NCBI GenBank assembly: GCA_036268055.1
Contig: DATAUW010000001.1
Coordinates: 124,001-188,000, forward strand
Reading direction: 5' to 3'
DNA from: Verrucomicrobiia bacterium
GTDB lineage: Bacteria > Verrucomicrobiota > Verrucomicrobiia > Limisphaerales > Pedosphaeraceae
DNA: 64,000 nucleotides
A program made the position numbers and the translations under genes. Of this stretch, positions 32,781 to 46,588 are shown in pieces. The notes below the pieces were generated by a model. That model searched no databases and was not told the DNA's origin. It saw only the letters and a program-made list of their open reading frames with translations. How positions within the stretch are numbered: position 1 is the first letter of the stretch; every line of letters starts with the position of its first letter.

Positions 32781-32870
32781 TGGCGGAAGGGGAGGGATTC
32801 GAACCCCCGGTGACGCAAGCGCCACGGCAGTTTAGTAAACTGCAGCTTTAAACCACTCAGCCACCCTTCC
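32781..32870 (-). tRNA. tRNA-Ser with anticodon ACU
   Basis: 90 nt on the minus strand, including an encoded CCA at 32783-32781. The acceptor stem GGAAGGG/CCCTTCC, D arm GCTGAGTGGTTTAAAGC, anticodon stem GCAGT/ACTGC, T arm GGGGG-TTCGAAT-CCCTC and a long variable arm (about 18 nt, self-pairing GTGGCGC/GCGTCAC) all fold. The long arm plus G73 mark it as tRNA-Ser. The anticodon loop is TTACTAA, so the anticodon (32836-32834) is ACU rather than the usual GCU for AGC/AGU codons. All else in the loop matches the expected GCU tRNA, so a single G34-to-A change is the simplest reading. Confidence 0.9.
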
Positions 32871-32966
32871 ACACATTTTTACTGTCCTTGCTCTTCATTA
32901 TGGCTTCGCTGATTTAGGAGGCAAGCAGGTTCTTTGAGTTCGCGCTCATGACGCCGCCCACTCCAC

Positions 32967-46259: not shown

Positions 46260-46588
46260 CCCGCGCCCCACACACAGCTCACCGATGGCGGCGCGTCGTA
46301 GCGCTTCGCCGTCCGAAGTCCCGCCGGGACGGCAGATCTTAGCCCAGCCATTTATGGCTGGGTTGGAGTCCTCTTTATATCAAGTCCCGCAGGGACGAAA
46401 GAAATTCCCGTATGGAACCAAAGCCCCCACACTCGCCCAACACTTCTCATTAATCCGTAATGTTAGTTAGGGGCAAACCAGGGCACGCGTGCAAGAAATG
46501 GTTTCAACCGTTTCTCGACTTTACCTGTCGCCCACTTATAATCCATTCCACGCTTGCGACGCCTTTCTTTCCGCGCTAACCTGAACCC
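46260..46588. other. Intergenic region with repeat sequences
   Basis: 329 bp without a gene. It contains hairpin repeat copy B (46309-46364), a second GTCCCGCAGGGAC hairpin at 46384-46396, and a spacer that then leads to the Uma2 gene start. No tRNA or other RNA gene is visible. A minus-strand ORF across 46463-46687 is considered chance. Confidence 0.6.
46309..46364 (+). repeat. Intergenic hairpin repeat, copy B
   Basis: About 56 bp, matching copy A (42704-42760) at about 48 of 56 positions by eye. The main hairpin is CCCAGCCA-TTTA-TGGCTGGG (46343-46362). Relative to copy A, an A-T pair has become C-G in the stem, keeping the pairing. Confidence 0.75.

What the first reader, a model, noticed from the sequence alone, without database searches (positions are those of the whole stretch)
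32834..32836. tRNA-Ser with ACU instead of GCU anticodon
All parts of a class II tRNA-Ser fold well, including the long arm, G73 and an encoded CCA, and the loop TTACTAA differs from the usual TTGCTAA by one base. A34 in a tRNA-Ser is rare. If deaminated to inosine it could also read AGA (Arg), which would be harmful; unmodified A would read AGU but AGC poorly. It is either a duplicate with a changed anticodon, a special adaptation, or an error.
Basis: partly seen in the sequence, partly recalled or inferred. Interest (0 to 1): 0.6.

Follow-up and report, generated by a model that had tools for sequence, protein, structure and literature searches.

The report
Serine tRNA with "forbidden" ACU anticodon
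This bacterium carries, besides its normal set, an extra serine tRNA whose anticodon (ACU) the literature describes as absent from all life; it is no sequencing error, because the same gene is conserved in four bacterial families and the same anticodon turns out to be common in phages.

Summary
Window 32781-32870 (-) is a well-formed class II tRNA-Ser with G73, encoded CCA and anticodon ACU at 32834-32836. It is not an error: four more genomes of the order (Pedosphaera-type Verrucomicrobia; four families in all) carry it at 84-96% identity, with paired substitutions in the stems and an invariant loop, although the flanks differ. All five also have a normal tRNA-Ser(GCU), so ACU is an accessory fifth serine tRNA. 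A 2021 review calls A34 tRNAs in split codon boxes universally missing (PMC8007984). I find tRNA-Ser(ACU) on 98 contigs among 84,980 species genomes and on at least 120 viral contigs. Most likely it is charged with serine, keeps an unmodified A34 and reads AGU: an engineered ACU tRNA in E. coli was not deaminated and read AGU but not AGC or AGA (PMC11066159). A phage origin is favoured by tRNA trees but not proven. Carrier genomes show no AGU enrichment.

The parts
32781..32870 (-). tRNA-Ser(ACU) gene, class II, 90 nt with encoded CCA
   Evidence: ARAGORN; Rfam RF00005; conserved in five genomes
32834..32836 (-). anticodon ACU (A34 C35 U36)
   Evidence: sequence; ARAGORN; invariant in five genomes
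32832..32838 (-). anticodon loop UUACUAA, with A37
   Evidence: sequence; alignment A1
32810..32825 (-). long variable arm (6 bp stem), the SerRS identity element; four of its six pairs show changes on both sides among five genomes
32784..32784 (-). discriminator base G73
   Evidence: sequence; alignment
32897..32924 (-). promoter-like site TTGCCT-16-CATAAT, 27 nt upstream of the tRNA (weak: 1 found, 0.4 expected)

Best explanation
The gene is a real, selectively maintained accessory tRNA-Ser. It is charged with serine by the ordinary SerRS, which recognises the long arm and G73 and not the anticodon. It keeps an unmodified A34 and reads AGU by Watson-Crick pairing beside the normal tRNA-Ser(GCU), which reads AGC and AGU. 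It belongs to a wider class of tRNA-Ser(ACU) genes that is common in phages and scattered in bacteria, and it was probably acquired from a phage or other mobile element by an ancestor of several Pedosphaera-type families. Shown: sequence, fold, conservation with compensatory changes, coexistence with GCU, a single ordinary TadA, wide occurrence in phages. Inferred: expression, charging, the state of A34, AGU reading in this organism, and the phage origin.
For: Structure and identity elements. Five genomes from four families carry it; the tRNA is conserved while the flanks are unrelated; 6 of 26 pairs show double changes, 0 of 500 shuffles reach this, and the loop is invariant. ACT identity across the five (84-96%) is of the same order as that of GCT (87-100%), as for a kept gene. 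G004 and G031, of different families, share three downstream genes in order beside it. All five carriers also have Ser(GCT). Pedosphaera-type carriers have one canonical TadA like their non-carrier relatives, and three Patescibacteria carriers show no canonical TadA match, so A34 there should stay A. Experiment by others: an ACU tRNA in E. coli was unmodified, read AGU 9.4%, AGC and AGA below detection, AGG 0.36% (PMC11066159). Phage link: at least 120 viral contigs with ACT against 91 with GCT in one fixed geometry; ACT and GCT nearly exclude each other (2 of 199 and 0 of 209 loci); ACT phages use more AGU, p 0.006 after correction for other NNT codons. With position 34 masked, the five tRNAs form one clade (0.90) inside a 67-tip clade (0.93) with 40 phage ACT rows.
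Against: There is no expression or charging data. Carrier genomes show no rise in AGU use over non-carriers. Carriage is patchy: 5 of 320 genomes in the order. The AU test does not reject descent from the host's own GCU (p 0.31) or CGA tRNAs (p 0.43); 84 columns are too few. The neighbours are ordinary chromosomal genes, with no prophage seen. The phage contigs are not independent of each other.
Confidence: 0.62

Rival explanations
1. The tRNA protects translation against nucleases: A34 in place of G34 makes it insensitive to an anticodon nuclease or toxin that cuts tRNA-Ser(GCU), first useful to phages and then kept by some bacteria as protection against phage- or plasmid-borne nucleases.
For: Phage tRNAs with anticodon-loop changes that escape nucleases are described (PMC10264068); a VapC toxin that cuts tRNA-Ser is known (PMC10945364, abstract). 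In phages ACT replaces GCT and does not accompany it. No AGU enrichment in carriers fits a role other than codon supply. In Polynucleobacter the tRNA lies in arrays on mobile-looking DNA near a HigBA-like pair.
Against: No anticodon nuclease was identified near the gene, and none was searched for by profile; PMC10264068 reports tRNA-Ser(gct) as not targeted in mycobacteria. No experiment. The higher AGU use of ACT phages fits codon supply.
Confidence: 0.15
2. It is a neutral leftover: a phage or duplicated tRNA that is transcribed little and tolerated because AGU is read correctly as serine.
For: Carriage is patchy in the order; no codon-usage signature; only a weak promoter match.
Against: Paired double changes, 100% pairing and an invariant loop over families whose flanks have fully diverged mean selection.
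Confidence: 0.13
3. A34 is deaminated to inosine by TadA, so the tRNA reads AGU, AGC and partly AGA as serine.
For: TadA is present in the order; the ACU loop shares A34 and C35 with the normal ACG substrate.
Against: An ACU tRNA in E. coli showed no inosine (PMC11066159). AGA as serine would be harmful; a tRNA-Arg(UCU) is present (L011) and AGA is still used, 1.7 per 1000. Patescibacteria carriers show no canonical TadA.
Confidence: 0.05
4. It is not used for translation but supplies serine for another reaction, such as cell-wall peptide bridges or amino-acid transfer.
For: Extra tRNAs with such roles exist (own knowledge: tRNA-Gly isoacceptors used by FemX in Staphylococcus). No codon-usage signature.
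Against: The tRNA keeps ordinary body, CCA and loop features; no transferase gene was noticed beside it; not searched further.
Confidence: 0.04
5. Sequencing or assembly error at 32836.
For: None beyond rarity.
Against: Independent assemblies carry the same base in the same loop.
Confidence: 0.01

Closest known systems
tRNA-Ser(GCU), the universal bacterial reader of AGU and AGC
   Same: class II fold, G73, CCA, U33, C35-U36, A37; serine identity expected
   Different: A34 for G34; body only 70-80% identical to the GCU tRNA of the same genome; accessory, not universal
Bacterial A34/I34 tRNAs: tRNA-Arg(ACG), and tRNA-Leu(AAG) of some Firmicutes
   Same: encoded A34
   Different: those serve four-codon boxes and are TadA substrates; this one sits in a split box where inosine would miscode (PMC8007984; PMC11066159)
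Phage-borne tRNAs, e.g. tRNA-Ser(act) of Salmonella phage Munch and Rhizobium phage RHph_TM30
   Same: the same ACU anticodon in a class II serine body
   Different: here a lone chromosomal gene among ordinary genes, kept over several families
tRNA-Ser(ACU) of chlorovirus ATCV-1 (listed in PMC4810235)
   Same: same isotype and anticodon
   Different: a eukaryotic algal virus; sequence not compared here

Membership tests
tRNA-Ser (class II) | cloverleaf with long variable arm | tested here: met
tRNA-Ser (class II) | G73 and CCA end | tested here: met
   alignment
tRNA-Ser (class II) | aminoacylated with serine by SerRS | not testable with these tools
   needs a charging assay
tRNA-Ser(GCU) isoacceptor | G34 in the anticodon | tested here: not met
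   A34; invariant in five genomes
I34 (TadA substrate) tRNA | encoded A34 | tested here: met
I34 (TadA substrate) tRNA | ACG-type loop, four-codon box | tested here: not met
   ACU in the Ser/Arg split box
I34 (TadA substrate) tRNA | deaminated in the cell | not testable with these tools
   published E. coli test of an ACU anticodon: not deaminated (PMC11066159)
Phage-derived tRNA | body groups with phage tRNAs to the exclusion of host tRNAs | tested here: inconclusive
   tree favours it; AU test does not reject host origin
Phage-derived tRNA | lies in a prophage or mobile element | tested here: not met
   ordinary neighbours in window and four relatives by reading of the ORFs; no family search was run on them
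tRNA pseudogene | stem mismatches or free drift | tested here: not met
   100% paired cells, paired double changes

The most novel reading that the evidence does not exclude
The 'universally missing' split-box anticodon ACU is a standard item of phage tRNA sets, where it replaces GCU, and has been taken over by several bacterial lineages, including this one, as a nuclease-resistant or AGU-dedicated serine tRNA; A34 in split boxes is thus not forbidden by decoding chemistry.
Probability: 0.3. Interest if true: 0.75.

Novelty: new variant of a known kind. Interest (0 to 1): 0.6.

Why it matters
A review treats A34 tRNAs in two-codon boxes as universally absent and extends this to phages (PMC8007984). 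A conserved bacterial gene and at least 120 viral contigs contradict the rule for serine. This makes the old question of why A34 is excluded directly testable with natural molecules, some in cultured hosts (Polynucleobacter strains) and cultured phages (Munch, RHph_TM30).

Tried and rejected
Sequencing error: rejected by independent genomes. A lost or replaced GCU gene: rejected, GCU is present in all five carriers. A first order-wide pattern had a wrong spacer and missed even the window gene; corrected. AGU codon adaptation in carrier genomes: not seen. Prophage context of the window gene: not seen. Special TadA copies in carriers: not seen, one canonical TadA as in relatives. Control for mutant anticodons: among the listed matches (list truncated), sequences with the full tRNA-Ser D-arm always had GCU; no serine body with UCU or CCU was seen, the other matches looked like chance or unrelated repeats. 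BLAST of the region against plasmids found nothing. The AU test could not separate phage from host origin. In Patescibacteria, lack of a GCU match by pattern in some genomes was not taken as absence, because the pattern is strict.

Full report
WHAT IS THERE. The window holds one tRNA gene, 32781-32870 on the minus strand, 90 nt: GGAAGGGTGGCTGAGTGGTTTAAAGCTGCAGTTTACTAAACTGCCGTGGCGCTTGCGTCACCGGGGGTTCGAATCCCTCCCCTTCCGCCA. It has a 7 bp acceptor stem, a 3 bp D stem, a 5 bp anticodon stem, a 6 bp variable arm, a 5 bp T stem, G73 and an encoded CCA. The loop is UUACUAA, so the anticodon is ACU at 32834-32836. Rfam scores it 55.4 bits.

THE GENOME'S SERINE SET. A whole-genome tRNA search gave 44 tRNAs. 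Reading them shows Ser(CGA), Ser(GCU), Ser(GGA), Ser(UGA) and this Ser(ACU), and an Arg(UCU) and Arg(ACG). The ACU tRNA is therefore an extra fifth serine tRNA, not a substitute for GCU.

NOT AN ERROR. Of 320 genomes in the order, five carry the gene: two of the window's family (G000, G004), and one each of three other families (G023, G028, G031). One of these records is named Pedosphaera sp., two others Verrucomicrobiales. All five also have GCU. The same pattern with GCU-type loops matched most genomes of the order, so the low count of ACU is not due to the pattern. The five ACU genes are 84-96% identical, GCU of the same genomes 87-100%. Six of 26 stem pairs have changed on both sides, none of 130 cells is unpaired, and the loop never varies. 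Outside the 90 nt the flanks are unrelated. In G004 and G031, of different families, three downstream genes are the same and in the same order, at 40-59% protein identity, so the gene has been inherited there for long. This is the signature of a kept gene.

HOW RARE, AND WHERE ELSE. A review of tRNA genes states that A34 tRNAs of split boxes, Ser-Arg included, are universally missing, and that phages lack the same genes (PMC8007984). A scan of 84,980 species genomes with a strict serine-body pattern gave 98 contigs; ARAGORN calls all 98 tRNA-Ser(ACU). Most are Patescibacteria by title (many Magasanikbacteria and Paceibacteria, often directly beside a Ser(GCU)); others are Planctomycetes, Polynucleobacter (cultured strains), Verrucomicrobia and Diapherotrites archaea. 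For 50 of these genomes a combined pattern was run; in nearly all of those that are not Patescibacteria a GCU gene was also found. In one fixed geometry ACU again reached the limit of 120 while GCU gave 91 in all. So in phages ACU is at least as common as GCU in that geometry; the true ratio is not known because the scan stops. ACU and GCU hardly occur together on one viral locus: 2 of 199 and 0 of 209. These loci are stretches of contigs, so a second tRNA further away could be missed. Named phages with it are Salmonella phage Munch, Klebsiella phage fENko-Kae01, Erwinia phage Hallingskeid and Rhizobium phage RHph_TM30, the last annotated tRNA-Ser(act) by its depositors. A chlorovirus case is listed in PMC4810235. 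So the anticodon has been annotated before, but I found no paper that discusses it; papers outside the held library were not searched.

ORIGIN. With position 34 masked, the five Pedosphaera-type genes form a clade inside a group of 67 that is mostly phage ACU. A second tree with the whole anticodon masked agrees in outline. But holding them with the host's GCU or CGA genes is not rejected (p 0.31 and 0.43). A phage origin is favoured, not shown. The gene lies among ordinary chromosomal genes in all five genomes as read from the ORFs. In Polynucleobacter it sits in small tRNA arrays on DNA with a VirD4-like protein, a recombinase and ParB-like genes, by my reading of the translations, which suggests that mobile DNA can carry it.

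MECHANISM. SerRS reads the long arm and G73, not the anticodon (established knowledge), so serine charging is expected. The question is A34. In E. coli an orthogonal tRNA with ACU was not deaminated; it reassigned AGU at 9.4%, AGG at 0.36%, and AGC and AGA below detection (PMC11066159). Pedosphaera-type carriers have one canonical TadA like non-carriers, and three Patescibacteria carriers show no canonical TadA match. I therefore think A34 stays A and the tRNA reads AGU only. Codon use gives mixed support: carrier bacteria show no excess of AGU over non-carriers (few genomes, simple ORF calls), while ACU phages use AGU more than GCU phages, also after correction for other NNT codons (p 0.006; contigs not independent).

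VERDICT. A confirmed, conserved and unexpected tRNA. It is a new variant of a known kind: an ordinary serine tRNA body with an anticodon that the literature calls missing. Its physiological advantage here is not known; AGU supply is the simplest reading, protection against tRNA nucleases the most interesting rival.

Noticed in passing
window 46317-46362 (-): Match to the Rfam family Acido-Lenti-1 (RF01687), a small RNA, 49 bits against a gathering score of 37.
   Followed up: no
L158, L160, L175 (Polynucleobacter sp. JS-Safj-400b-B2), L179 (AM-25C3): tRNA arrays Thr(CGU)-Gly(CCC)-Ser(ACU) in several copies; in L158 and L179 beside HigBA-like and Rrf2-like genes, on DNA that looks mobile (VirD4-like, recombinase, ParB-like).
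   Followed up: partly
L085, L097, L101, L103, L105 and about nine more (Planctomycetes contigs): Near-identical tRNA-Ser(ACU) without encoded CCA in many freshwater planctomycete bins; some record titles (e.g. Chitinophaga) look mislabelled.
   Followed up: no
L087, L100, L106, L113 and other Magasanikbacteria and Paceibacteria loci: Ser(ACU) and Ser(GCU) genes on the same short stretch in many Patescibacteria.
   Followed up: no
viral loci L269-L388, L389-L508, L509-L587, L588-L676: A few other A34 split-box tRNAs called by ARAGORN in phages: Asp(atc), Phe(aaa), Tyr(ata), Cys(aca), His(atg); each only once to three times.
   Followed up: no
L104, L124, L126, L148, L172: Ser(ACU) in Diapherotrites archaea, a domain in which all A34 anticodons are said to be missing; GCU also present in the three genomes checked.
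   Followed up: partly
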